Below, piece after piece: positions 1,990 to 59,052 of a stretch of 64,000 nt of DNA. This stretch comes from a virus. The notes beneath the pieces were generated by a model. That model was not told the origin of the DNA. It saw only the letters and a program-made list of their open reading frames with translations, and did no database searches. Location: positions 1-64,000 of the IMG/VR virus record IMGVR_UViG_3300020057_001229. One strand, written 5' to 3'. Numbering within the stretch: position 1 is the stretch's first letter; each line of letters starts with the position of its first letter. Both the position numbers and the translations under genes were made by a program.

Positions 1990-3136
1990 GAAAGAAGCCC
2001 CCGTCCTCCGAGGGCGGGGATGAATTTCAGTTAGTTAAAACCTGAAATCAGTGTAATATAGTTCCATGTTTCTAACCTACAACTTCAGAGTCAAAGACGC
2101 TTCTACCAAGAACCTTCTGAAGAGAATGGCTTCTGACACAAACTTCGTTTGGAACTTTTCAAACAACATAGTCAAAGACAACTGGCAGAAATCTAGAAAA
2201 TATACCTCTAAGTATGATTTGAACCCTCTCTTAAAGGGAAGTTCTAAATACCTTAATATAAACTCGCAGACAATCCAAGCTGTAGCTCATGAATGTGTTT
2301 TGAGGACACAGAAAGCAAAGAAATAAGTCAGATTCAGAACCGCAAAAAGAAACTTGGGGTGGGTTCCAATAAACGGGCAGACCTTCAAACTCCAAGGCTC
2401 AACTCTCATTTATAATAAGAAATACTTCAAACTTTGGAAATCTAGAGACCTGCCTAAAGACGCCCTTATTAAAACAGGATGCTTCTCCCAAAACTCTGAA
2501 GGAAAGTGGTTTTGTAATATAACGTTTGAAACTAAGCTTCTAGCTCGGAAAGCCCCCGAAAGGGAAGTCGCTCTAGATCTCGGTTTAAAAACCCTCTACA
2601 CAACTTCAGACGGTTTAAAGTACGAACTGAGAGTTAATAACACTAAGAAATATGCTTTAAAGCTGGCTAAAGCGCAAAGAGCTAAGAAGAAAAAACAAGT
2701 TACTAAGATCCACACCAAAATTAAGAACTCTAGAAAAGACTGGAACCACAAAGAAACCACAAAACTAGCATCGAATTACAACCTTATTTTCGTCGGAGAC
2801 GTAAGTTCTAAGGCGCTGAAGAAAACTAAGATGGCGAAGTCTGTTTCAGACGTAGCCTGGTTTCAGTTTAAAACTTTCCTGAAGTATAAAGCTATTAAGC
2901 ACTCAGGAGAGATGCATGAAATTAAAGAAAGATTTTCCACAGTAACTTGCTCGGTTTGCCTGTCGAAGACAGGTCCGAGCGGACTAAGAAACTGTGGAGT
3001 AAGAGATTGGATATGCAGCGGTTGTGGCTCTAGCCATGACAGAGATACAAACGCTGCTTCAAACATTCTCCGTTTCGGGCATGAAACGCTTAACTTAAAA
3101 GGAATCCCACGGCTAAAGCCGTGGGGAGGATGTCAA
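1990..3136 (+). mobile_element. IS200/IS605-family element carrying only a decayed tnpB
   Basis: Left end: a G/C-rich hairpin (1998-2019) followed by GGGGATGAATT, shared with the second remnant at ~13.4 kb. Right end: a CCACGGCTAAAGCCGTGG hairpin followed by GGAGGATGTCAA (to 3136). No tnpA is present, so it could only have moved with a transposase in trans. The right end falls inside the 3' end of the lipoprotein gene at 3113-3583, supplying that gene's last codons. A separate 10-bp hairpin at 1936-1959 (GGGTGGTT arms) precedes the element. Confidence 0.85.
2066..3136 (+). pseudogene. tnpB: TnpB-type RNA-guided nuclease, interrupted by an in-frame TAA
   Basis: N-terminal part (2066-2323) and the rest (2327 onward) are in the same frame, separated by a single TAA at 2324-2326. 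Continuing through it restores an RFR...LGW segment usual in TnpB, so this is a nonsense mutation, not a frameshift. RuvC-I (EVALDLGLKTL), a four-Cys zinc finger (CSVC...CSGC) and RuvC-III (HDRDTNAASNI) are present. At the RuvC-II position the motif is IFVGDVSS, with Asp rather than the usual Glu. No stop occurs before the right end; the frame runs on antisense into the neighbouring lipoprotein. Probably inactive. Confidence 0.85.
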
Positions 3137-3583
3137 CGTACCTGGACGTTCAAACATCTGCTTAAGCCTAAGGCTCTCTGCCGTAATGCGGTAGAAAAGT
3201 TGATCGGCGTAGGTGCCGTAGGTGGTAGCTGCATACGCTGTGCGGAAGCCTGCGTAAGTCATGCGTTCATAAATACGGTACGCATCTTCGACCTTGAAGT
3301 AGGTCACTTCGTTAAGTGCCGTCTCCAAGTTCTCAAGGGAGAGCGTAGCCGTATCTATAGAATCACAAAGAGCCGAGTAGGTGTTTACACAACCTACCGG
3401 CGAACGGATGTCGGTGTAGTCAAGGCGAAGTGTCGTAAGCGAGCTTAAAGCTTCAGCACGACGGAACCAACGGGGATCATTCTCAACCGGAGCTTCAGGC
3501 GTAGGAGCTGAATCACTCTTCTTAGAAGAGCTACCGCAAGACACTAAAAATGTGAGACAGCACAAAGCTACAAGCCTACGCAC
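3113..3583 (-). CDS. Lipoprotein, C-terminus rewritten by the IS right end
   Basis: 156 aa with a classic lipoprotein signal (basic start, hydrophobic core, LTFLVSC lipobox, Cys ~16), then a Ser/Pro-rich linker and a mainly helical domain. Probably anchored in the host envelope during infection; function unknown. The last seven residues (LTSSPRL) and stop codon are encoded by the right-end sequence of the adjacent IS200/IS605 element, so insertion replaced the original C-terminus. Confidence 0.75.
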   Translation of the reverse strand: MRRLVALCCLTFLVSCGSSSKKSDSAPTPEAPVENDPRWFRRAEALSSLTTLRLDYTDIRSPVGCVNTYSALCDSIDTATLSLENLETALNEVTYFKVEDAYRIYERMTYAGFRTAYAATTYGTYADQLFYRITAESLRLKQMFERPGTLTSSPRL

Positions 3584-7012: not shown

Positions 7013-7504
7013 GTGATTATAACGCCTAAGCAATTGTCTAAAGAGCGCCTCGACATTGGTAACGCTTCCGGCATCTACGTTATGTCTCACGATCAAGCCC
7101 GAACGTTCTACCCGAAGAGGGACGCCTTCTGTATCCGCATTAGGTCGGCGAACTTTGAATGCCAGCCGCTCGTCCACGCCGACCGCTACAAAAGCATCGA
7201 CCTATTCACGTTCGCCGACGTAGACTTCGACGACAAAGACTTTGAGCCCTTCACCACGGCGCAAGCCGCAGCTATGGTTGATCTTTTCGAAAAGTTCAAA
7301 GACCTCAACCTCGTCGTCCACTGCATGGCTGGTCTGTCGAGATCACCGGCTACCGCTTTGGCTTTCCTCTACTTCAAGCAGGACGTTGAAGGCTTCAGGC
7401 AGGCTTCGCTCTACTTCACGATGGCTAACAGCCACGTCTACAGTCTGCTCAAAAACGAGATCGACCGCAGAGCCGAAATTTATACCAATAACGTTATGCC
7501 GTAG
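7013..7504 (+). CDS. Dual-specificity/tyrosine phosphatase-like protein
   Basis: 163 aa. HCMAGLSRS at ~103-111 is the CX5R P-loop of cysteine phosphatases (Cys104 nucleophile, Arg110). A general-acid Asp could lie in DVDFDDKD (~69-76). Could dephosphorylate host or phage proteins or RNA 5' ends. GTG start without an obvious ribosome site. Its 3' end overlaps the convergent ADP-ribosylglycohydrolase by 25 nt. Confidence 0.8.
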   Translation: MIITPKQLSKERLDIGNASGIYVMSHDQARTFYPKRDAFCIRIRSANFECQPLVHADRYKSIDLFTFADVDFDDKDFEPFTTAQAAAMVDLFEKFKDLNLVVHCMAGLSRSPATALAFLYFKQDVEGFRQASLYFTMANSHVYSLLKNEIDRRAEIYTNNVMP

Positions 7505-8271
7505 ACTTTCTGGAACCGTAAAATGGCGTCTACGAAATGTGAGGGCAGCCGTTTGAAGGTCTCCACCACCATCATCTTCGGGATCTTACGGTAGTGAGCT
7601 TCCGCAATTGCTCCGGCAATGGACGCCTGCGTATCGGCATCTCCACCTAACGAGATCGCAAGCCTTATCGCCGACTCGAAGTCCGTGCTCTCCAAGAAGG
7701 CTCTGATTGCTTGCGGAACGGAGCCTTGGCAGGTGGCGTCCATTTTGTATTTCTTACGGATCATGTCGAGCGGCGTCGAGAGGTCGTAGCCGAAGCGAGT
7801 TTCTAGTTCTTGCCGCAACTTGTCTTTGCAGTAGCCACCATGAACGCACTTGTTCACCCAAACGGCATAAGCAACAGCTTGAGCCCCCTTAATGCCTTCG
7901 GGGTGACTATGTGTGGGGTACGCCGACGCCGCAGCTTCACGTAGAAGGTCGGTCTCTTGGCACTCGCTGTAGGCAACAGGAGAGACCCTCATAGCTGATC
8001 CGTTTCCGAACGAGTCGCCGGGCTTGGGGTCGTCCGACATAAACCAAGCTTTGAACGTCTTGCCGTAGCCTGCGTCAGGGTAGCGGCGACACCAATGAAG
8101 AAGAGCAAGCTCGTAGTCTTTGTGGTGCATCACGGCTTCAGCAACGGCTAAGGTGCAGACCGTATCGTCGGTGAACTTAGAGAACGGTGTAAAGAGTTTG
8201 AAGTCCGTCCGTTTCGTAGGATGAAATTCATAGGTACTTCCAACCATATCGCCAATAAGCGCACCTAGCAT
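7480..8271 (-). CDS. ADP-ribosylglycohydrolase (DraG/ARH family)
   Basis: 263 aa, near normal family length. Motifs in order: GALIGDMVGS (3-12), FTDDT (33-37) for the dinuclear Mg site, SHPEG (~122-126), and SLGGDADTQAS (207-217) giving the C-terminal metal ligands. Removes ADP-ribose from proteins or nucleic acids, or hydrolyses related metabolites. With the macro-domain protein (46650-47111) and ART-like protein (20562-21170) it suggests the phage edits ADP-ribosylation. Confidence 0.92.
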   Translation of the reverse strand: MLGALIGDMVGSTYEFHPTKRTDFKLFTPFSKFTDDTVCTLAVAEAVMHHKDYELALLHWCRRYPDAGYGKTFKAWFMSDDPKPGDSFGNGSAMRVSPVAYSECQETDLLREAAASAYPTHSHPEGIKGAQAVAYAVWVNKCVHGGYCKDKLRQELETRFGYDLSTPLDMIRKKYKMDATCQGSVPQAIRAFLESTDFESAIRLAISLGGDADTQASIAGAIAEAHYRKIPKMMVVETFKRLPSHFVDAILRFQKVYGITLLV

Positions 8272-18317: not shown

Positions 18318-19667
18318 TCAACCTCCATCATTAAGGTATCTTAGATAACGCCGAACTCTCTCTGCGTCTGCATACAGGTGAATTTCCGTGTTGTCGGTGA
18401 AACCACAAAAACGCCCCCCAAGACCTTGCATCTCAGTGTCGAGGTTCACACCCGAGTCAAAACCACCCCAAACTTTGTCTTTTTCAGGAAGGTTGACACC
18501 CACCCGTAGAAATCCTAAAATGACCACAAGACACGGCTTTTCAACCTTTACCAACCAATCCTTCATAGGATAGTCTTTTTGACGGTGTTGGTCATAGATG
18601 ACAACGTCAAAAGCTTTCCCGAACTTCTTAAGACAGTGCTTCTTAATCGCCGCAGCTTGTCTACCGTTACCGACTCTCAAATATGAGATGAACCTTTTCT
18701 TCGTGAAGATCGAAGCAAAGTGGTCTAGGAACGTAACGCCGACAGAAGTGATCGTCACAGGCTTATAGGCTTGTTTGCCCCGTATTTTACCACCACCCCT
18801 GAGAGCGGGGCTTCCTCCTGTGTCAGTTAATTGGAGTCGATCTATGCCGTAGTAGCCCTCGAAGTCAAGTACCTCTTTAGGGATACTTAAAGTGAGAAAG
18901 TGGTTCGCCGCAATTTCGCTTCCCTCGACCGCAAAAGCTGTGGCGCTCATAACTATGATGAAGCACCCTGGATCAGACATTGCTTCTGAAAATACGTTCC
19001 GACTAACTAGACTTCCAGATTCAGATCCAAAGTGGATCTCATCTACGATAAGGAGAGAAAGCATCGTGCTTTCCGAATTGTGAAGTCCTGCCTTAGTCTT
19101 GGGTAGGTAAGCGTCGGGGTTTATCTCACAGATTTTTATCTTGTCGCTATCCTTATTCTCTTTGTTCTGAAGCGTGCTCACGAAATGAGCGCTGATTTCA
19201 CCAAGCATTAGCTCGTACTCAGGGGGGAGTTTGACAGTAGGCAGAAACTTTAACCAGAAAAGAACGGCACGAGCGAAGTCTGCTTTTCCGGCTTGAAACG
19301 GGAACGGAATTAAAACCCCTTTCAAGCGCGCCTTGTCATAAAAGCAAGCGACATAGATGTCAATGACAATAAGCGCAGCAACAAGCGCCTGGCGAAAAAG
19401 AAAGGAGCGGGTGCCGTCAACTCCTACTATGCTCAACCCACGCTTGTCAAGCTCGACCGCGCCGCTCTTCAAAGTTAGATCAATCAGGGCACTGCTACGA
19501 GAGCTGCAATAGAAGTCCACACCTTTGAAACGATTGCTCTTTTTTAGCTTCTCAATCCACTGCCTGTAGCAAATCGGCAGGGTATACGCCGCGATTTTTG
19601 CCTTACTGACCTCTTTCGTTACAGCCATTGCGCTGCTTTTCTTTGTAGTAGACGCCGCTCGTACCAT
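18318..19667 (-). CDS. SF2 helicase/translocase-like protein
   Basis: 449 aa from ATG 19667 (AGAGGT 6 nt upstream). Motif II DEIH (209-212), motif III MSAT (240-243) and motif VI-like QGLGGR (414-419) identify an SF2 ATPase. Motif I is unusual: PFPFQAGKAD (~121-130) with Ala in place of Thr/Ser after Lys. The layout recalls helicases of multi-gene restriction systems (Z1 or type III-like). Probably translocates DNA in a restriction or defence complex with the 17717-18316 protein and the methyltransferase. Confidence 0.8.
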   Translation of the reverse strand: MVRAASTTKKSSAMAVTKEVSKAKIAAYTLPICYRQWIEKLKKSNRFKGVDFYCSSRSSALIDLTLKSGAVELDKRGLSIVGVDGTRSFLFRQALVAALIVIDIYVACFYDKARLKGVLIPFPFQAGKADFARAVLFWLKFLPTVKLPPEYELMLGEISAHFVSTLQNKENKDSDKIKICEINPDAYLPKTKAGLHNSESTMLSLLIVDEIHFGSESGSLVSRNVFSEAMSDPGCFIIVMSATAFAVEGSEIAANHFLTLSIPKEVLDFEGYYGIDRLQLTDTGGSPALRGGGKIRGKQAYKPVTITSVGVTFLDHFASIFTKKRFISYLRVGNGRQAAAIKKHCLKKFGKAFDVVIYDQHRQKDYPMKDWLVKVEKPCLVVILGFLRVGVNLPEKDKVWGGFDSGVNLDTEMQGLGGRFCGFTDNTEIHLYADAERVRRYLRYLNDGG

Positions 19668-19724
19668 GTTCGTACCTCTCAGCTTGAGATGTTCATTTAC
19701 AGAGCACCTATATGGCTCCAACCG

Positions 19725-35189: not shown

Positions 35190-35335
35190 GGTGACACGTT
35201 CGGTTCCCCCATGTAGGTCTTACAAGCACTGTAAATGCCGTTGCGTTGGTTCGAACCCAACCCTCCCGGTAACGGGGGGTAGCTCAGTTGGTAGAGCACG
35301 AAATTTAGCCCTATAACCTTGAACCGAACTTCACC
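35190..35335 (+). ncRNA. Permuted tRNA-like RNA, copy A (3' half before 5' half)
   Basis: Order on the strand: arm GTTCGGTTC (35198-35206); 38-nt segment; T arm GTTGGTTCGAACCCAAC (35245-35261); 3' acceptor strand CCTCCCG (35262-35268); linker GTAA; 5' acceptor strand CGGGGGG (35273-35279); TA; D arm GCTCAGTTGGTAGAGC (35282-35297); 23-nt segment; arm GAACCGAAC (35321-35329). Outer GTGA/TCAC extends the closing stem. Acceptor strands pair across the linker with one G-T pair. No anticodon arm and no CCA are visible. Copy B at 58909-59052 has the same design with different but compensating arm sequences. Confidence 0.75.
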
Positions 35336-35369
35336 CACCGCAAGGTGGGTGTCCTCTTTCTGGAGATAT

Positions 35370-40352: not shown

Positions 40353-41018
40353 TTAGTCGGGTATCGCCGCCGAGCTGATGGCGTGTTCAGTTTTCAAATC
40401 TAGCAAACCTATGTAGAGCAAGTACATCACTACAGCATTAAAAATGTGCCACATGAAGTGGGTGCCTAGCGGGAAAGACTTGCAAAGTGGCAAGTCCAAA
40501 GCCCTCAACGTCAAAGAGGCTATAAACAGTACAGTTGCGCCTACGAACTTTTTGGTTGCTACCGAGCCTTTAACCCACACTTGGTAAGTAGCGATGGCGC
40601 TGAGCAGTAGAGTTCCGAAGTAGTAGTTGGAGTTGGCGACTAGGGAGTGATCGACGTAGGTCAAGAAGCCAAAGTTGATAGCGAAGAAGAGGGCGTAAAT
40701 TGAAAGAACTATCCAAGGTCCCAACGCCAACGCACTGTAGAAGGCTCCTATAAAGACTATGATCCAAGAAACCAACGGAAAGACATCAAGCCACCTCCCC
40801 CACGGCTCGCCGTAGACGTGCAGTAAAGCACTGCCTAAGCCCGTTACGAAGGTAAAGAAGGTCAAAAGAACTTTCGATAGAGACCAGTTCTTTGTCTCTA
40901 GTATCATGAACAGACCAGCAATCAGGAAGGCGACGTTTGACCATGTATTGAGAGGCTCGTAGAAGACTCTAGTGCCCGTTAAGCGTTCGCAGTAGGACGT
41001 AAGTGTGTTGTAGTCCAT
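40353..41018 (-). CDS. Alkaline ceramidase/CREST-family membrane hydrolase
   Basis: 221 aa with about seven membrane helices. CREST residues are visible: Ser63 and His67 (GSALLHVYG), Asp78 (WLDVFP), and His187/His191 (THFMWHIFNA), the zinc-hydrolase set. TWSN near residue 25 is also typical. Alkaline ceramidases cleave ceramide; bacterial relatives act on other membrane lipids. May remodel host membrane lipids. Confidence 0.8.
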   Translation of the reverse strand: MDYNTLTSYCERLTGTRVFYEPLNTWSNVAFLIAGLFMILETKNWSLSKVLLTFFTFVTGLGSALLHVYGEPWGRWLDVFPLVSWIIVFIGAFYSALALGPWIVLSIYALFFAINFGFLTYVDHSLVANSNYYFGTLLLSAIATYQVWVKGSVATKKFVGATVLFIASLTLRALDLPLCKSFPLGTHFMWHIFNAVVMYLLYIGLLDLKTEHAISSAAIPD

Positions 41019-41034: not shown

Positions 41035-41829
41035 TCATCCGCTCGATAGACCCGTCGAAGATGAATCTTGAGCCCTGCGAATGACTGGAATTTGGGATCT
41101 TAAGAAATCCCTGTTTTGGGTAAACACTGGAATATTATTATCAAGCACAAACCCCTCATCTTTAGGGGACTTAACAACCATTCGCCCCCTTTTCTGATAG
41201 ATTGGCAGATCGTTCCAGTTGATCCCCTTTGCCATTAGCATGTCGTGCATATTAGAGCAGTTCTTACCTTCTAGCTCTTTATGAGAATAAAGGCTTCTAG
41301 CCATCATCTGAAGGCTGTTGCGGGAGGCGTCTTGCTGCCGCCAAATGAAGTAGTTTTCTACCTCGATGGGGTCCGCAATTGTGAAGACTCTAGAATCGAA
41401 AAGAGCTATTTTGAATGTATCTTGAGAGCTTCGGAACCGGTTAGGAGCAAACGGAAAATCGTGGACCGATCCCTCACTTTGGAAACGGTTGTTAAAAGCC
41501 GCCGTAGCTACAGACGCACTTATTGAACAGATCTTCTGTATGTTGCCGTCAAAATAAGCGTCGGTGTTGTCGTTGCCGAAGTCTGTCATGAGAACCGAGA
41601 TTTCGTCGCTTTGTGTATACGAAAAGACCGCTCCGCTTAATGTCGTGCAAAGCAGATCGGCAGCGGCGTCCATGGAGCAAACAAGGCTGTCATCAATGGG
41701 GAAGTTCATTCCCTTCGTGAACGTATGGAAGGCTTTGCCGTCGATCCTGACCACCGTATACGTCCGCCGTGGCAAAAAGTAACGGGTGCGGTTTTCGTAG
41801 TTGCCTTTCATCCGGTCGCCGAGTTCCAT
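41035..41829 (-). CDS. Thg1-like 3'-5' polymerase (tRNA-His guanylyltransferase family)
   Basis: 264 aa. Opens LGDRMKGNYENRTRYFLP; VVRIDGKAFHTFTKG (metal Asp30, GKAFHTFT signature) and YTQSDEISVLM (Asp75-Glu76) are the two-metal catalytic motifs. Thg1-like proteins add nucleotides to tRNA 5' ends in the 3'-5' direction and repair truncated tRNAs. Relevant to the phage's tRNA set and permuted tRNA-like RNAs. Start overlaps the upstream gene by 22 nt. Confidence 0.92.
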   Translation of the reverse strand: MELGDRMKGNYENRTRYFLPRRTYTVVRIDGKAFHTFTKGMNFPIDDSLVCSMDAAADLLCTTLSGAVFSYTQSDEISVLMTDFGNDNTDAYFDGNIQKICSISASVATAAFNNRFQSEGSVHDFPFAPNRFRSSQDTFKIALFDSRVFTIADPIEVENYFIWRQQDASRNSLQMMARSLYSHKELEGKNCSNMHDMLMAKGINWNDLPIYQKRGRMVVKSPKDEGFVLDNNIPVFTQNRDFLRSQIPVIRRAQDSSSTGLSSG

Positions 41830-43838: not shown

Positions 43839-45329
43839 ATGCTGAAGGCAGTGCTGCGCATAGGAGGTGGTTTAGTCGCCGTGTTCGGTGTCGTGCTGGT
43901 GACGTACACACTTAAGAGGATAGACTCTTACCTCGCGGACACACCCCTGCTTCTAGGCATATCTTCGCTTACGCTGATCGCGTTTTTCTTCGGCTGGTGG
44001 TCCGCCGTCATCTCCGCGCTTGCTTTTATTACCCTCATTAAGCTCTACGTTTCGCCAGAAATCCACACGGTGTCTTTCAGTCTTTTTGTCGCTCAGACTG
44101 CGATCATTGCGGGGCTCATCGAGAAGCTAGGTAACGCACGCCGTAGCTGCTCAGACGAAGCTACCAAATGCCAAGAGACCGAACACGAGCTTCGAGCCGC
44201 AAAAGAGCACGCAGAAAGATCTAACCAGACTAAGGGAGAATTTCTAGCCAACATGAGCCACGAGCTTCGCACTCCTCTCGGTGTCATTCTAGGCTACAGC
44301 GAAATCATAGCGAACGACACGCCTTCAAAGGAAGAGAAGATAGAATATGCTGACGCTATTAAGCGCAATGGTGAAACGTTAGCCAGATTGATAGATGACA
44401 TACTTGACCTAAGTCTTGCAGAAGCACAAAAGATAAGTATTGAAATACTACCTACATGCCTTAAAGATCTATGTACAGTTTTAGAAAAAGAGATGACGCC
44501 TCTAGCTGTACTAAAAAATATACGATTAAAGGTACACTGCGCCGATGTTCCTAATAACATACGCACTGACCCAATTCGTCTTAGACAAATACTTAGCAAT
44601 CTAGTTAACAACGGTATTAAATTCACCCCTTACGGAGGTGAAGTAAGCGTGTATGTGGAAAAATATGAAGAGACGCTATGCTTCGTCGTTCGGGACAATG
44701 GTAAGGGAATTTCTACTGAAGAAGCTAAGAAGCTTTTCAAGCCCTTCTCACAAGCCGACAGCTCTACGACGCGGAAATATGGGGGGACAGGCTTAGGCTT
44801 AGCGCTTTCTAAAAAGCTTGCTCAAAGCCTTGGCGGGGATGTTTTTTTGCGGGAAAGCGTTCCCGGCAAAGGGAGCACATTCGTTGTTCAAATCCACTTG
44901 ACGCCGACATCCTTGCACGAGACCAAGAGCAAGCATAAACATTTTGACGGCGCTCTCGACGGTGTCCGAGTCCTTCTTGCCGACGATGCCTTCGATAACA
45001 GACTGCTTTTGAAAGCGCTTTTGAAGCCAACGGGTGCGCTGCTTCGACTAGTGGAAGACGGCGAGCAAGCGCTTCAAGCTGTGCAACAGCACGACTTTGA
45101 CGTTGTTTTCTTAGATCTTCAAATGCCTATAATGGACGGCTACGAAGCTTGCCGTGCGCTGAGAAGTCAAGGCTACACAAAACCTATCATCGCTTTGACC
45201 GCGCACGCTATGCAGGAAGAAAGAACCAAAACGAAGACTGCTGGGTTCGATGCCCATGTCACTAAGCCGGTCAACGTCGGAAACCTCGTGAGCGCAATTC
45301 GTGCCTCGCTCGACGCCAAACCGAGTTAG
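43839..45329 (+). CDS. Hybrid sensor histidine kinase (TM-HisKA-HATPase-REC)
   Basis: 496 aa. Three to four N-terminal membrane helices (~5-95), no large periplasmic sensor, coiled coil (~100-130), HisKA with His141 (ANMSHELRTPL), HATPase with N box (SNLVNNGIKF), DNGKGI and GGTGLGL, then REC with Asp382/383, phospho-acceptor Asp426 (FLDLQMP), Thr454 and Lys476. All catalytic residues intact. AGAGGG lies upstream of ATG. Needs an Hpt protein to pass phosphate on: see 34280 and receiver 59174. Its last codons lie in the 34-nt repeat. Confidence 0.95.
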   Translation: MLKAVLRIGGGLVAVFGVVLVTYTLKRIDSYLADTPLLLGISSLTLIAFFFGWWSAVISALAFITLIKLYVSPEIHTVSFSLFVAQTAIIAGLIEKLGNARRSCSDEATKCQETEHELRAAKEHAERSNQTKGEFLANMSHELRTPLGVILGYSEIIANDTPSKEEKIEYADAIKRNGETLARLIDDILDLSLAEAQKISIEILPTCLKDLCTVLEKEMTPLAVLKNIRLKVHCADVPNNIRTDPIRLRQILSNLVNNGIKFTPYGGEVSVYVEKYEETLCFVVRDNGKGISTEEAKKLFKPFSQADSSTTRKYGGTGLGLALSKKLAQSLGGDVFLRESVPGKGSTFVVQIHLTPTSLHETKSKHKHFDGALDGVRVLLADDAFDNRLLLKALLKPTGALLRLVEDGEQALQAVQQHDFDVVFLDLQMPIMDGYEACRALRSQGYTKPIIALTAHAMQEERTKTKTAGFDAHVTKPVNVGNLVSAIRASLDAKPS

Positions 45330-53624: not shown

Positions 53625-54380
53625 ATGAATCGCACTCTCTCCGGTTGGTTATCTGCTCACGAAGCGATATGTCCTTCGTGGAGAGAGTTTGTGCATCACG
53701 ACCTACCCTTCGATCACTTAGCACTTAGAACCTTTGCTCACTACGGCGTCGGACAAGACCTCGGTCTAGATGCTCTCAGCTCCATGATCTGCCAAGACAT
53801 GGGTTACAAAGTAGCAGCCGAGTACAACCTAACTGAAAAAAAGGTACGAGCTTACTACCTCGAACGTCAAGACTACCCCAAGATCTTTATCAGCGAGCTT
53901 CTTTGGAGGGAGTTCACTGAAGATGTCCAAAAGGTTTTAGAACGTGTTTTGTCCCACAATGCACCTGTAAGGCTTGCGCCGTGGCTCTTCAAAGGAACTA
54001 GACCTTGGATCAACGCAAGTAAAGAGGACTACGACGCGGTAGCTAAGGAGTCTAGCTACGGCGCTTGGCTGATTGCTTGGGGTTATGTCGCCAACCACTT
54101 CGCCGTTCACCTCAGCATGGACAAGTCGATAGCTCTCTGCAAAAGTCTCAACTTGTCGATGAATGGTGACGGCAAAGTGCAAGGCTCTAAGAGTGTAGGT
54201 TTAGAACAGTGCTCCACGAAGGCGGATCAAATTGTCCACCCACTCTTCGGAGCCTATCTCGACGGCGGCTTCGTTGAGTTCGTTCAGCGTTGGCAAGACC
54301 CCCAAGATCCATTCAAGCTCTACTCCGGCTTCGTAGAGAAGTCGGCAAGCAAAGTCATGGAGTCTACGGGGGAGCGTTGA
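53625..54380 (+). CDS. DUF1338-family (HglS-like, VOC fold) protein
   Basis: 251 aa, AAGGAG before ATG. HLALRTFAHYG (31-41; His31 a probable metal ligand), ESSYGAWLIAWGYVANHFAVH (~142-162), and VQGSKSVGLEQCSTKAD match DUF1338 proteins. HglS of this family is an Fe(II) 2-oxoadipate dioxygenase/decarboxylase. Its role in a phage is unknown: metabolic help or small-molecule modification are possible. Confidence 0.85.
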   Translation: MNRTLSGWLSAHEAICPSWREFVHHDLPFDHLALRTFAHYGVGQDLGLDALSSMICQDMGYKVAAEYNLTEKKVRAYYLERQDYPKIFISELLWREFTEDVQKVLERVLSHNAPVRLAPWLFKGTRPWINASKEDYDAVAKESSYGAWLIAWGYVANHFAVHLSMDKSIALCKSLNLSMNGDGKVQGSKSVGLEQCSTKADQIVHPLFGAYLDGGFVEFVQRWQDPQDPFKLYSGFVEKSASKVMESTGER

Positions 54381-56209: not shown

Positions 56210-57505
56210 ATGATCGACTTACATGCCTTAATCACTGATCAAATAGCCGAATTGAAAGGCAACCAGTTCTTTCATGGTGGTTTCATACTCGGCGTGTTGG
56301 GTGCGATAGCGGCGATCTTTAGGCAAGTTCCACATAAGATCTGGGGTCTTTTTCTCCGCTACATTCTGACGACGGTGGAGTTTACGAGTCAGGACGATTT
56401 CTATGTATGGTTCAGTCTTTGGTTGAACAAGCAAACGTTCATCAAAGACAAAAACCGTCTACGCATTCAAACCAAAGTGCATCGTGACGGCGACCACGGT
56501 CCACGCTTTGGGGGAGGAGCCGACCAACAGCGAAAGATCGACGTGATTTACACTTTAGGCAACGGCACCCACATCGTCCGCTTCGGCTCTCTGTTTATGC
56601 GTGCGACGAAAGAGAAAGAGCCGCAGACGCAGGGTTCCGCCCACGGCAATATGGCGGCACGAGACATGTTCGTACTCACCATCTTAAGCTTCCAACGCCG
56701 CAGACTAGAACGACTTATTACGTCTATCAGTGACGAGTTCCAGAAAGAGCACACCAACAAAACCACCATTTTGCACTTCAACGTAGGCTACGACGAGTGG
56801 GTGCCGTTGTCGGTGCAGTCCAAGCGGGACATTTCGTGCGTCGTCCTCAAAGAAGGTCAGATGGAAGAAATTTTAATTGACTACGAAAACTTTCAAAAGG
56901 ACAAACCGCTTTATGATTCTTTAGGCATCCCCTACCAAAGGGGTTACCTCTTGCAGGGACCGCCAGGTACAGGCAAGACGAGCTTGATCTTTGCCTTTGC
57001 GAGCTACTACGACTTAGCCGTATGTACGTTGAGCCTCAGTGACTTCGAATCTGACCGTCAGTTTCAAAAAGCGGTCATGGGTATGCCGGACAAAGCAGCA
57101 CTCGTCATCGAAGACATCGACTCGTTCTTCAAAGGTAGAGAAACCGTCTCTGAGAAGCCTGCGTTTTTATCGTTCTCAGGCTTGTTGAATGCCCTCGGCG
57201 GACTCGCCGTCAAAGAGGGTAGGGTTCTCTTCGTTACCACCAACAAGCCTGAAGACATCGACCCTGCGTTGACTAGAGCAGGTCGTCTAGATAAGAGCTT
57301 CCTATTGTCCTACGCCGATGCCTACCAAGTCCGCCGTTTGTTCCTGCAAGTCTTTCCAAATGCCGTAAGCCAAGCAGATTCATTTGCTGAGACGGTCGCC
57401 GAGATGAACCTGTCCCCGGCTAAACTTGTGGACTACCTTTTCACAAACAAAAGCAGTCTCTCGGACACACTCCGACTTACGCATAGGCTCAGCGCTGGAG
57501 GATAA
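56210..57505 (+). CDS. BCS1-like AAA ATPase
   Basis: 431 aa, AAAGG before ATG. N-terminal membrane helix (~22-38, FILGVLGAIAAIFRQV), BCS1-specific beta domain (~60-200), AAA module: Walker A GPPGTGKTS (250-258), Walker B LVIEDID (298-304), sensor TTNKPEDIDPAL, Arg fingers R356/R359. Mitochondrial BCS1 translocates a folded protein across a membrane; prokaryotic and phage relatives are little studied. May move a protein across, or extract it from, the host membrane. Confidence 0.92.
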   Translation: MIDLHALITDQIAELKGNQFFHGGFILGVLGAIAAIFRQVPHKIWGLFLRYILTTVEFTSQDDFYVWFSLWLNKQTFIKDKNRLRIQTKVHRDGDHGPRFGGGADQQRKIDVIYTLGNGTHIVRFGSLFMRATKEKEPQTQGSAHGNMAARDMFVLTILSFQRRRLERLITSISDEFQKEHTNKTTILHFNVGYDEWVPLSVQSKRDISCVVLKEGQMEEILIDYENFQKDKPLYDSLGIPYQRGYLLQGPPGTGKTSLIFAFASYYDLAVCTLSLSDFESDRQFQKAVMGMPDKAALVIEDIDSFFKGRETVSEKPAFLSFSGLLNALGGLAVKEGRVLFVTTNKPEDIDPALTRAGRLDKSFLLSYADAYQVRRLFLQVFPNAVSQADSFAETVAEMNLSPAKLVDYLFTNKSSLSDTLRLTHRLSAGG

Positions 57506-57528: not shown

Positions 57529-58635
57529 TTAAAGGGCTTCCAGAAGTCTTGAAGCATTGTCGTGACATGTTGTAGCTCGTTCGCTGCAACTACCGCTATC
57601 CGGTTCTGGGAGTCGGGGTGGTTGGTGAGGGAGTAACTTACATGGTACATAATCATGCGTGATGCCCTTGCGCTGAGCTGCGAGTAGAGCCCGCTTTCGG
57701 CGACCTCTCTCGCACTCGAAGTTCCTGTTCAACATATAGTACATTTTACGGTAGTGCTTTTCGCACATCCCCTTACAGTGCCCTAGCTCTGTACAGTTTT
57801 CAACTCTACACTCCGTCTTGTTGTGCCGTTTTACGACAACTTCCTTTCCAAGACGTTGCCGTGTGTAGTGATTCTTACACATAAGCAGAGCATGTGCAGG
57901 CTGCTTGCACTTGAAGACCGAACAGGTTTTGCCGACGTTGTAGTTGGCGATCTTTCTAAGTGGGACGCCACGGTCATCTATGAAGCCCATCTCCCACTGC
58001 TTGTAGTGGCGAACGCAGAAGCATCGTGACTTCGGTCGCATCTTACACCCACGAGCACGGCACTGCTCGTTAGCGCCGTATGTTTTACGGTTGCGTCGAA
58101 GCTCGCCGCCGTCGTTGTCGATCAAGCCGTAGCGGTGTTCTTGTTGGTAGTGTTTGTGGCACAGTCCCCGGAGGAGGTCACCACCTGCTGTACAAAGGCG
58201 ACAGGTTTTCAGTGTGTGGCTTTTACCTTCCCGCTTTTCTCCTAGATGGATCTTGCAGAGCTTCTCGTCAACGCTGCGGTATTGGCAGTTGAGGACGTAG
58301 CAGAAGGCACGACCCTTCTGCCTCGGCTGGCGTATGATTTTCCCTTCGAGGTCACAGTCACCCTTCAAGAACCAATTGTAGTGACGTTTGCAAAAGCGAC
58401 CGCCATGTATCAGCGGCTTGTATTCTTTGCAGCCCTCGATAAGACATTTTCTTTTACGCAATTCTTCGTCTAAGACGACGGCGTAAATCTCGGTGCGTAA
58501 GCCGTCTTCCGTGATGTGGTTTTCCTTGAACTTGCGGTAGTGATAGCCGCAAAACCTTTTGGCGTAGAACGCCTTACCGCAATGTTCGAAAATGCAAGTC
58601 GGCTTTCCAACAGCAACAACAGCCTCAACCAACAT
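57529..58635 (-). CDS. Seven-zinc-finger repeat protein
   Basis: 368 aa from ATG 58635 (GGAG upstream; GTG 58641 also possible). Seven tandem C-x3/4-C-...-C-x2-H-Y units, e.g. CIFEHCGKAF-RFCGYHY, CRARGCKMRP-CFCVRHY, CRVENCTELG-GMCEKHY. Such units occur in phage HNH-type and DNA-binding proteins; here they form the whole protein, suggesting nucleic-acid binding. Confidence 0.78.
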   Translation of the reverse strand: MLVEAVVAVGKPTCIFEHCGKAFYAKRFCGYHYRKFKENHITEDGLRTEIYAVVLDEELRKRKCLIEGCKEYKPLIHGGRFCKRHYNWFLKGDCDLEGKIIRQPRQKGRAFCYVLNCQYRSVDEKLCKIHLGEKREGKSHTLKTCRLCTAGGDLLRGLCHKHYQQEHRYGLIDNDGGELRRNRKTYGANEQCRARGCKMRPKSRCFCVRHYKQWEMGFIDDRGVPLRKIANYNVGKTCSVFKCKQPAHALLMCKNHYTRQRLGKEVVVKRHNKTECRVENCTELGHCKGMCEKHYRKMYYMLNRNFECERGRRKRALLAAQRKGITHDYVPCKLLPHQPPRLPEPDSGSCSERATTCHDNASRLLEAL

Positions 58636-58849
58636 CCGCACGTCTCCATCGCTTCACGTACAAACCAGGATTCCTCCGCTCGAAGGAAGCAAAGAGCTTC
58701 TCTTTCGTGGAGAGAACGGTGCCTAAGTAGCAACCATTTTTTAGGGTGCGATTTGTCCAGCCCGCAGAGCAGCTCCGATCACCGTAGCGACCGCGAACGC
58801 AGTAAATGCATGGTACAAATTTTATATAGTTGGAATTAGCTTCCCGCAC
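58625..58849 (-). CDS. Possible small Cys-containing protein
   Basis: 74 aa, GTG start with weak site; CIYCVRGRYGDRSC could bind zinc. Stop overlaps the start of the zinc-finger gene. Moderately protein-like only. Confidence 0.4.
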   Translation of the reverse strand: MREANSNYIKFVPCIYCVRGRYGDRSCSAGWTNRTLKNGCYLGTVLSTKEKLFASFERRNPGLYVKRWRRADVG

Positions 58850-58908: not shown

Positions 58909-59052
58909 AGTGAGTCGGTCCAAGATGCCAATGCGTATTTTCCGTGCTCTACCAACTGAGCTACCTCCCGGTAAAGTCGGGAGGGTTGGACTTGAACCAA
59001 CGACAGCGGGCTTTAATAGCGTGTAAGCACTGACTGAGGGGACCGACTCACT
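58909..59052 (-). ncRNA. Permuted tRNA-like RNA, copy B (3' half before 5' half)
   Basis: Minus-strand order: arm GTGAGTCGGTCC (59051-59040); 38-nt segment; T arm GTTGGTTCAAGTCCAAC (59001-58985); 3' acceptor strand CCTCCCG (58984-58978); linker ACTTTAC; 5' acceptor strand CGGGAGG (58970-58964); TA; D arm GCTCAGTTGGTAGAGC (58961-58946); 24-nt segment; arm GGACCGACTCAC (58921-58910). The 12-bp outer stem is perfect and an A-T pair extends it. Acceptor strands pair perfectly. Aligned with copy A, acceptor and outer-stem changes compensate. Confidence 0.78.

What the first reader, a model, noticed from the sequence alone, without database searches (positions are those of the whole stretch)
35190..35335. 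Permuted tRNA-like RNA, copy A
Seen: a T arm and 3' acceptor strand come first, then a 4-nt linker, then the 5' acceptor strand and D arm, so the two tRNA halves are in reversed order. Acceptor strands pair across the linker, and flanking arms GTTCGGTTC/GAACCGAAC close the whole structure where an anticodon arm would be. Known: permuted tRNA genes exist in some algae and archaea, and permuted tmRNA genes in some bacteria; I know of no phage family of this form. Inference: cleavage in the linker (e.g. by RNase P and 3' trimming) would free a real acceptor stem on a tmRNA-like body lacking an anticodon. It could act as a decoy for tRNA-targeting defences, a tmRNA-like device or a packaging signal.
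Basis: partly seen in the sequence, partly recalled or inferred. Interest (0 to 1): 0.93.

Follow-up and report, generated by a model that had tools for sequence, protein, structure and literature searches.

The report
Phage Y RNA that mimics tRNA
This virus of bacteria carries two copies of a small RNA shaped like a tRNA cut open and rejoined in another order; it belongs to the known 'YrlA' class of bacterial Y RNAs, which normally hold the ring protein Ro60 and an RNA-degrading enzyme together, but here no Ro60 gene was found in the sequenced part of the virus.

Summary
At 35198-35329(+) and 58909-59052(-) lie two ~130-145 nt elements with T arm, 3' acceptor strand, short loop, 5' acceptor strand and D arm, closed by two helices with an internal loop; helices differ between copies by compensatory changes. 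It is not an unknown family: it has the layout of YrlA, the tRNA-mimicking bacterial Y RNA and scaffold of Ro60 (Rsr). A covariance model built only from 46 Ro60-linked RNAs (A and B left out) finds B (61 bits, E 7e-16) and A (56 bits, E 2e-14) as the two best matches in the 88.7-kb record, above all tandem-tRNA controls. In other viruses the same core lies on the same strand beside TROVE (37/80 loci) or Ro60-fold DUF2828 genes (13/80), never on the opposite strand; 0/69 control loci have it. Open: this record (probably a fragment of a jumbo phage) has no Ro60-like gene, and A/B have their own version of the Ro-binding module. New member, perhaps variant, of a known kind.

The parts
35198..35329 (+). 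Copy A, whole YrlA-like Y RNA (outer helix to outer helix)
   Evidence: sequence; fold z -3.2; R1 56.2 bits, E 1.6e-14 for 35245-35321; RF02553 28.8 bits
35198..35206 (+). Copy A outer helix, 5' strand GTTCGGTTC (pairs with 35321-35329 GAACCGAAC)
   Evidence: 3 of 9 pairs changed on both sides in B
35207..35211 (+). Copy A 5' side of internal loop CCCCA (opposite ACCTT 35316-35320); presumed protein-binding (Ro-type) module
   Evidence: conserved with B CCTCA/ATCTT; 3' CTTG shared with bacterial YrlA CTTGTCGC and phage CTTGTTCC
35212..35217 (+). Copy A inner helix, 5' strand TGTAGG (pairs with CCTATA 35310-35315)
   Evidence: 4 of 6 pairs changed on both sides relative to B
35226..35238 (+). 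Copy A anticodon-arm-like hairpin GCA-CTGTAAA-TGC
   Evidence: such a hairpin in 19 of 46 Ro60-linked RNAs, 0.86 expected from shuffles
35245..35261 (+). Copy A T arm GTTGG-TTCGAAC-CCAAC
35262..35279 (+). Copy A acceptor hairpin CCTCCCG-GTAA-CGGGGGG (GNRA tetraloop)
35282..35297 (+). Copy A D arm GCTC-AGTTGGTA-GAGC
35316..35329 (+). Copy A ACCTT + outer helix 3' strand GAACCGAAC
   Evidence: match runs to CUUG
35332..35351 (+). terminator-like hairpin just behind copy A
   Evidence: 8 pairs, 6 GC, T-rich tail
58909..59052 (-). Copy B, whole YrlA-like Y RNA
   Evidence: fold z -6.0; R1 61.1 bits, E 6.6e-16, full length; RF02553 37.4 bits, E 1.4e-4
59040..59052 (-). Copy B outer helix 5' strand AGTGAGTCGGTCC (pairs with 58909-58921 GGACCGACTCACT)
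59027..59034 (-). Copy B inner helix 5' strand GTCAGTGC (pairs with 58927-58934 GCATTGGC)
58946..59001 (-). Copy B tRNA-like core: T arm, acceptor hairpin CCTCCCG-ACTTTAC-CGGGAGG, D arm

Best explanation
Copies A and B are phage-encoded bacterial-type Y RNAs of the YrlA class. The permuted tRNA-like core (T arm, tetraloop-capped acceptor hairpin, D arm) is an effector end that is recognised as a tRNA would be; the two-helix stem with its internal loop is the module by which a Ro60-type ring protein (Rsr) holds the RNA. The RNA works as a scaffold: Ro60 on the stem, an RNA-processing partner (PNPase in Deinococcus) at the tRNA-like end, so that structured or damaged RNA is fed to the nuclease. 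Shown here: layout, homology to Ro60-linked RNAs, compensatory changes, strand-specific linkage of the family to Ro60-fold genes in other viruses. Inferred: transcription, protein partners and effect. The Ro60 partner here must be host-encoded or lie in the unsequenced part of the phage. Confidence in class membership about 0.9; in a Ro60-type partner in this phage about 0.6.
For: Same order of elements as the Rfam YrlA model, to which both copies match best. Model R1 from 46 Ro60-linked RNAs, A and B excluded: B 61.1 bits, A 56.2 bits; best tandem-tRNA match in the window 38.9 and elsewhere at most 48.6. Ro60-linked phage RNAs score 23-43 bits with RF02553, so A (28.8) and B (37.4) are typical. 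Core on the gene's strand in 37/80 TROVE and 13/80 DUF2828 loci, 0/160 on the other strand, 0 of 69 control viral loci. A DUF2828 protein is predicted to fold like Ro60 (Foldseek E 1e-9 to 1e-5). Outer and inner helices keep pairing through 3 + 4 double changes between A and B. 3' CUUG shared with bacterial and phage YrlA at the same place. YrlA anatomy and RYPER scaffold: PMC8394870, PMC4726728.
Against: No TROVE, DUF2828, DUF7788 or vWA_Ro60 match in the 88.7-kb record, nor with more sensitive family HMMs. The 5' side of the stem loop (CCYCA) matches neither the phage TROVE type (TGGCGTAG) nor the DUF2828 type (ACAGCAA) nor the bacterial type (GCGAATGC). RF02553 gathering score not reached. 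The only large relative found (236 kb, head protein 70% identical) has neither RNA nor Ro60. No expression data.
Confidence: 0.78

Rival explanations
1. Decoy: the RNA has the YrlA form but works without Ro60, as a tRNA-like bait that occupies host tRNA nucleases or tRNA-modifying enzymes during infection, protecting the phage's own tRNA cluster.
For: Copy A lies directly behind a cluster of one Pro and four Leu tRNAs; A has an anticodon-loop-like hairpin; no Ro60 gene in the record; the same idea was raised for Salmonella YrlA as competitive inhibitor of an anticodon nuclease (PMC7790460).
Against: The conserved stem and internal loop with compensatory changes would not be needed for a decoy; relatives are tied to Ro60-fold genes; the hairpin has only 3 pairs in A and is not met by the same criterion in B.
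Confidence: 0.12
2. Processed permuted tRNA or tmRNA-like molecule: cleavage in the linker frees a CCA-bearing acceptor end.
For: Acceptor strands pair perfectly across the linker; permuted tRNA and tmRNA genes are known elsewhere (general knowledge).
Against: The linker is a GNRA tetraloop in A and the family prefers GNRA/UUCG loops (24 of 30 four-base loops), which keep the hairpin closed; no encoded CCA after the acceptor strand; no ARAGORN or Rfam tmRNA call; relatives are Ro60-linked.
Confidence: 0.03
3. Two decayed adjacent tRNAs whose 3' and 5' halves lie side by side.
For: Tandem tRNAs give a similar order of arms and score 28-39 bits with YrlA models in this window.
Against: Acceptor strands complementary across 4 or 7 nt in two copies, no CCA, outer helices with compensatory changes, model scores above all tandem-tRNA controls.
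Confidence: 0.01

Closest known systems
YrlA, bacterial Y RNA (Rfam RF02553; Salmonella YrlA structure PDB 6CU1 as cited in PMC8394870)
   Same: Order T arm - acceptor hairpin - D arm on a stem made by the two ends; length 90-150 nt; CUUG in the 3' side of the stem's internal loop; anticodon-arm-like hairpin before the T arm (A)
   Different: Below the Rfam gathering score (as are the Ro60-linked phage RNAs); 5' side of the internal loop CCYCA instead of AAUGC; no rsr gene beside it
Phage Y RNAs beside TROVE (Ro60) genes: Caulobacter CcrColossus, Arthrobacter Atuin, Streptomyces Quantum
   Same: Core, acceptor hairpin with short stable loop, TTAC after the inner helix, CUUG in the 3' stem strand
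   Different: Those have 5' TGGCGTAG / 3' CGCTTGTTCC in the stem (typical form) and a Ro60 gene within about 1.5 kb
Phage Y RNAs beside DUF2828/DUF7788 (Ro60-fold) genes: Klebsiella KP13-26 and IMG/VR contigs
   Same: Core
   Different: 5' ACAGCAA motif; Ro60-fold gene beside it
Permuted tmRNA / permuted tRNA genes
   Same: Reversed order of tRNA halves
   Different: Those are cut to give a free acceptor end (general knowledge); here the acceptor is a closed hairpin, with no tag found and no CCA

Membership tests
YrlA (bacterial Y RNA) | Permuted tRNA-like domain: T arm, acceptor hairpin, D arm in that order | tested here: met
YrlA (bacterial Y RNA) | Basal stem formed by 5' and 3' ends, two helices with an internal loop (Ro-binding module) | tested here: met
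   helices and 5x5 loop with compensatory changes
YrlA (bacterial Y RNA) | Conserved Ro-binding sequence in the stem | tested here: inconclusive
   3' CUUG present in both copies; 5' part differs from three Ro60-linked types
YrlA (bacterial Y RNA) | Profile match: Rfam gathering score 69 bits | tested here: not met
   28.8 and 37.4 bits; but Ro60-linked phage RNAs score only 23-43 bits, so this cut-off does not separate phage YrlA
YrlA (bacterial Y RNA) | Profile match to a model of Ro60-linked RNAs, above tandem-tRNA controls | tested here: met
   61.1 and 56.2 bits against at most 48.6 for controls
YrlA (bacterial Y RNA) | Gene near a Ro60 (rsr) gene (usual, not strictly defining) | tested here: not met
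   no Ro60-fold gene in the 88.7-kb record; the record is a fragment, so absence from the genome is not shown
YrlA (bacterial Y RNA) | Binds Rsr and PNPase; modified by DusA/TruB | not testable with these tools
   needs biochemistry
tmRNA (permuted type) | tag reading frame, free acceptor end with CCA | tested here: not met
   no ARAGORN call, no Rfam tmRNA match, closed GNRA loop
tRNA (permuted gene) | linker that is cut out, full anticodon arm | tested here: not met
   GNRA loop in A; 3-bp hairpin in A and none by the same criterion in B

The most novel reading that the evidence does not exclude
A phage that carries two Y RNAs but no Ro60 of its own, with a stem module changed to fit another partner: a host Ro60 that it captures, or a protein not yet known to bind Y RNAs.
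Probability: 0.3. Interest if true: 0.65.

Novelty: new member of a known kind. Interest (0 to 1): 0.42.

Why it matters
It turns a puzzling 'permuted tRNA' into a phage Y RNA and shows how common these are beside Ro60-fold genes in viruses, although annotation misses them or calls them tRNAs. Why phages carry Ro60-Y RNA machinery is open; a phage with two Y RNAs and no visible Ro60 would be a direct test of whether the RNA has a role of its own or takes over the host's Ro60 and PNPase.

Tried and rejected
Exact-pattern searches for close relatives of A/B in viral contigs found none. A Ro60 candidate beside copy B (57529-58641(-), 370 aa) is an HNH-like protein with Cys/His repeats. The histidine kinase (43839-45329), the 467-aa protein (18318-19721) and others are not Ro60. 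No vWA MIDAS motif in any frame of 200 or more residues. Synechococcus S-H35 was an ordinary tandem-tRNA false positive. The 69 viral loci fetched with the phage's Thg1-like protein served as negative control: no core, no Ro60. tmRNA and decayed tandem tRNAs rejected. I found no paper on A/B-like RNAs without Ro60 in the held library; the key YrlA papers themselves are not held, so statements on them rest on papers that cite them.

Full report
WHAT IS THERE. Copy A occupies 35198-35329(+). Reading 5' to 3': outer helix strand GTTCGGTTC; CCCCA; inner helix strand TGTAGG; TCTTACAA; hairpin GCA-CTGTAAA-TGC; six bases; T arm GTTGG-TTCGAAC-CCAAC; acceptor hairpin CCTCCCG-GTAA-CGGGGGG; TA; D arm GCTC-AGTTGGTA-GAGC; inner helix strand CCTATA; ACCTT; outer helix strand GAACCGAAC; then a terminator-like hairpin. 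Copy B occupies 58909-59052(-), with a 13-bp outer helix, loop CCTCA/ATCTT, 8-bp inner helix and the same core with acceptor loop ACTTTAC. The minimum-energy fold gives the structure directly, z -3.2 for A and -6.0 for B. The copies are 79% identical by mean column identity of the alignment; of the outer helix 3 of 9 pairs, of the inner helix 4 of 6 are changed on both sides and still pair. No third copy and no tRNA were found in the remaining 24.7 kb of the record.

WHAT IT IS. cmscan against Rfam puts both copies on RF02553, YrlA, the bacterial Y RNA whose model has the same order of T arm, acceptor hairpin and D arm. The scores (28.8 and 37.4 bits) are under the gathering score of 69, and a tandem tRNA pair in the window reaches 28.3, so this alone is not proof. 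Three further tests follow.

TEST 1, NEIGHBOURS OF RELATIVES. BLAST of A and B against phage genomes gave unannotated cores in several phages. Each of the seven true ones fetched lies within about 1.5 kb of a Ro60-like gene: TROVE in Caulobacter CcrColossus, Arthrobacter Atuin and Streptomyces Quantum; DUF2828 + DUF7788 in Klebsiella KP13-26 and three Vibrio phages. An eighth, S-H35, is ordinary tandem tRNAs. In the three Vibrio phages the acceptor strands of two successive elements are exchanged (see noticed items), so they are a variant form. The phage RNAs beside Ro60 score 23-43 bits with RF02553, the range of A and B.

TEST 2, SYSTEMATIC LINKAGE. From IMG/VR I took 80 loci with TROVE and 80 with DUF2828 genes and scanned both strands with a rule for the permuted core. 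It is on the gene's strand in 37/80 and 13/80 loci and on the other strand in 0/80 and 0/80; with a looser rule 56 and 29 against 0 and 1, and 1 hit in 1.36 Mb of shuffled sequence. In 69 viral loci chosen for an unrelated gene (1.02 Mb) there is no core and no Ro60. The loci include some near-duplicates, so the counts are not fully independent. Of four records longer than 15 kb that were found by the RNA alone, two have a TROVE match (one of them weak), one has DUF2828, and one (139.6 kb), like our record, has none. DUF2828 as a Ro60-fold family: the AlphaFold model of the L121 protein (pLDDT 83) has Ro60/TROVE structures as its ten best PDB hits.

TEST 3, A MODEL WITHOUT A AND B. I fetched bacterial rsr loci, found their YrlA RNAs, joined 20 bacterial with 26 phage TROVE-linked RNAs and built covariance model R1. 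In the whole 88.7-kb record its two best matches are B (61.1 bits, E 6.6e-16, full length) and A (56.2 bits, E 1.6e-14, running into the CUUG of the stem); the next, a tandem tRNA pair, has 38.9. In 18 other loci the clearly tandem-tRNA matches reach at most 48.6 bits, and most Ro60-linked RNAs 54-101, the Vibrio variant 37-40. The E-values of R1 are rough (short calibration).

THE STEM MODULE. Bacterial YrlA reads 5' GCGAATGC and 3' CTTGTCGC; phage TROVE-linked RNAs mostly 5' TGGCGTAG and 3' CGCTTGTTCC; DUF2828-linked RNAs 5' ACAGCAA. A and B read 5' YCCCYCA and 3' AYCTTGRACC. They share CUUG with the first two but have a 5' side of their own. The lower stem is where Ro60 binds in known Y RNAs (PMC4726728). 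The partner of A and B may therefore be a diverged Ro60, or another protein.

NO RO60 IN THE RECORD. TROVE, DUF2828, DUF7788 and vWA_Ro60 give nothing at E up to 10; HMMs of 80 + 80 viral Ro60-like proteins run without filters give nothing meaningful, and no MIDAS motif is seen. The record has a major head protein and a tail fibre gene and is classed as a virus record; a relative with a 70% identical head protein is a 236-kb contig, so most of the genome may be missing. That relative shows neither RNA nor Ro60.

HOW IT LIKELY WORKS. Known: in YrlA the basal stem holds Rsr and the tRNA-like end binds PNPase, making the RYPER degradation machine; YrlA is modified by DusA and TruB (PMC8394870). 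In Salmonella, rsr, yrlBA and rtcBA form an operon induced by tRNA damage, and YrlA was proposed as competitor of an anticodon nuclease (PMC7790460). Jumbo phages with TROVE proteins and RNA repair genes have been described (PMC7824862). By homology A and B are such scaffolds. Shown: structure, homology, linkage of the family. Inferred: expression, Ro60 and PNPase binding, effect on phage growth.

THE LINKER. In A it is GTAA closed by a G-C pair, a GNRA tetraloop; of 30 four-base loops in the Ro60-linked set 16 are GNRA and 8 UUCG. Such loops keep a hairpin closed. A free acceptor end is therefore unlikely.

AN ANTICODON-ARM-LIKE HAIRPIN. 19 of 46 Ro60-linked RNAs have, 4-7 nt before the T arm, a 3-5 bp hairpin with a 7-nt loop of the form NTNNNAA; shuffles give 0.86. 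A has one with loop CTGTAAA; B does not meet this criterion. So some of these RNAs are a tRNA permuted as a whole, opened between D arm and anticodon arm. I do not know whether this has been described.

VERDICT. Real and largely explained: a new member of the YrlA class in a phage. The missing Ro60 and the changed stem module are the parts worth following.

Noticed in passing
L121 (and 80 loci L121-L200); Klebsiella KP13-26 L015:1257-2687: Phage DUF2828/DUF7788 proteins are predicted to have the Ro60 fold (Foldseek best hits TROVE and Ro60 structures) and 13 of 80 loci carry a permuted tRNA-like RNA on the same strand, typically with 5' ACAGCAA; 682 phage records have such a protein.
   Followed up: partly
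L044, L045, L046, L049, L067, L074, L092 and others; window 35226-35238: Anticodon-arm-like hairpin with loop CTNNTAA just before the T arm in 19 of 46 Ro60-linked YrlA RNAs; the base before AA is nearly always T.
   Followed up: partly
L017, L018, L022 around 3000-3180 (Vibrio phages): Two successive elements with exchanged acceptor strands: CTTCCCC of the first pairs with GGGGAAG of the second, CTGTCC of the second with GGACAG of the first; one deposit annotates the middle as a suppressor tRNA.
   Followed up: no
window 41035-41829(-): tRNA-His guanylyltransferase (Thg1-like, phrog_4717, E 1e-75) in a phage with tRNA clusters.
   Followed up: partly
window 56210-57505(+), 43839-45329(+), 7480-8271(-), 53625-54380(+), 40353-41018(-): Unusual phage cargo: BCS1-like AAA ATPase, hybrid histidine kinase, ADP-ribosylglycohydrolase, HGLS-type dioxygenase, ceramidase-like protein.
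   Followed up: no
window 57529-58641(-): Protein with several Cys/His repeats matching phage HNH endonuclease families, directly downstream of copy B.
   Followed up: no
L016 2452-3101 (CcrColossus): Three YrlA-like RNAs in a row (88-101 bits with R1) upstream of one TROVE gene.
   Followed up: no
L031 (IMGVR_UViG_3300028844_004840, 139.6 kb): Another viral record with a clear YrlA-like RNA (67 bits with R1) but no TROVE or DUF2828 match.
   Followed up: partly
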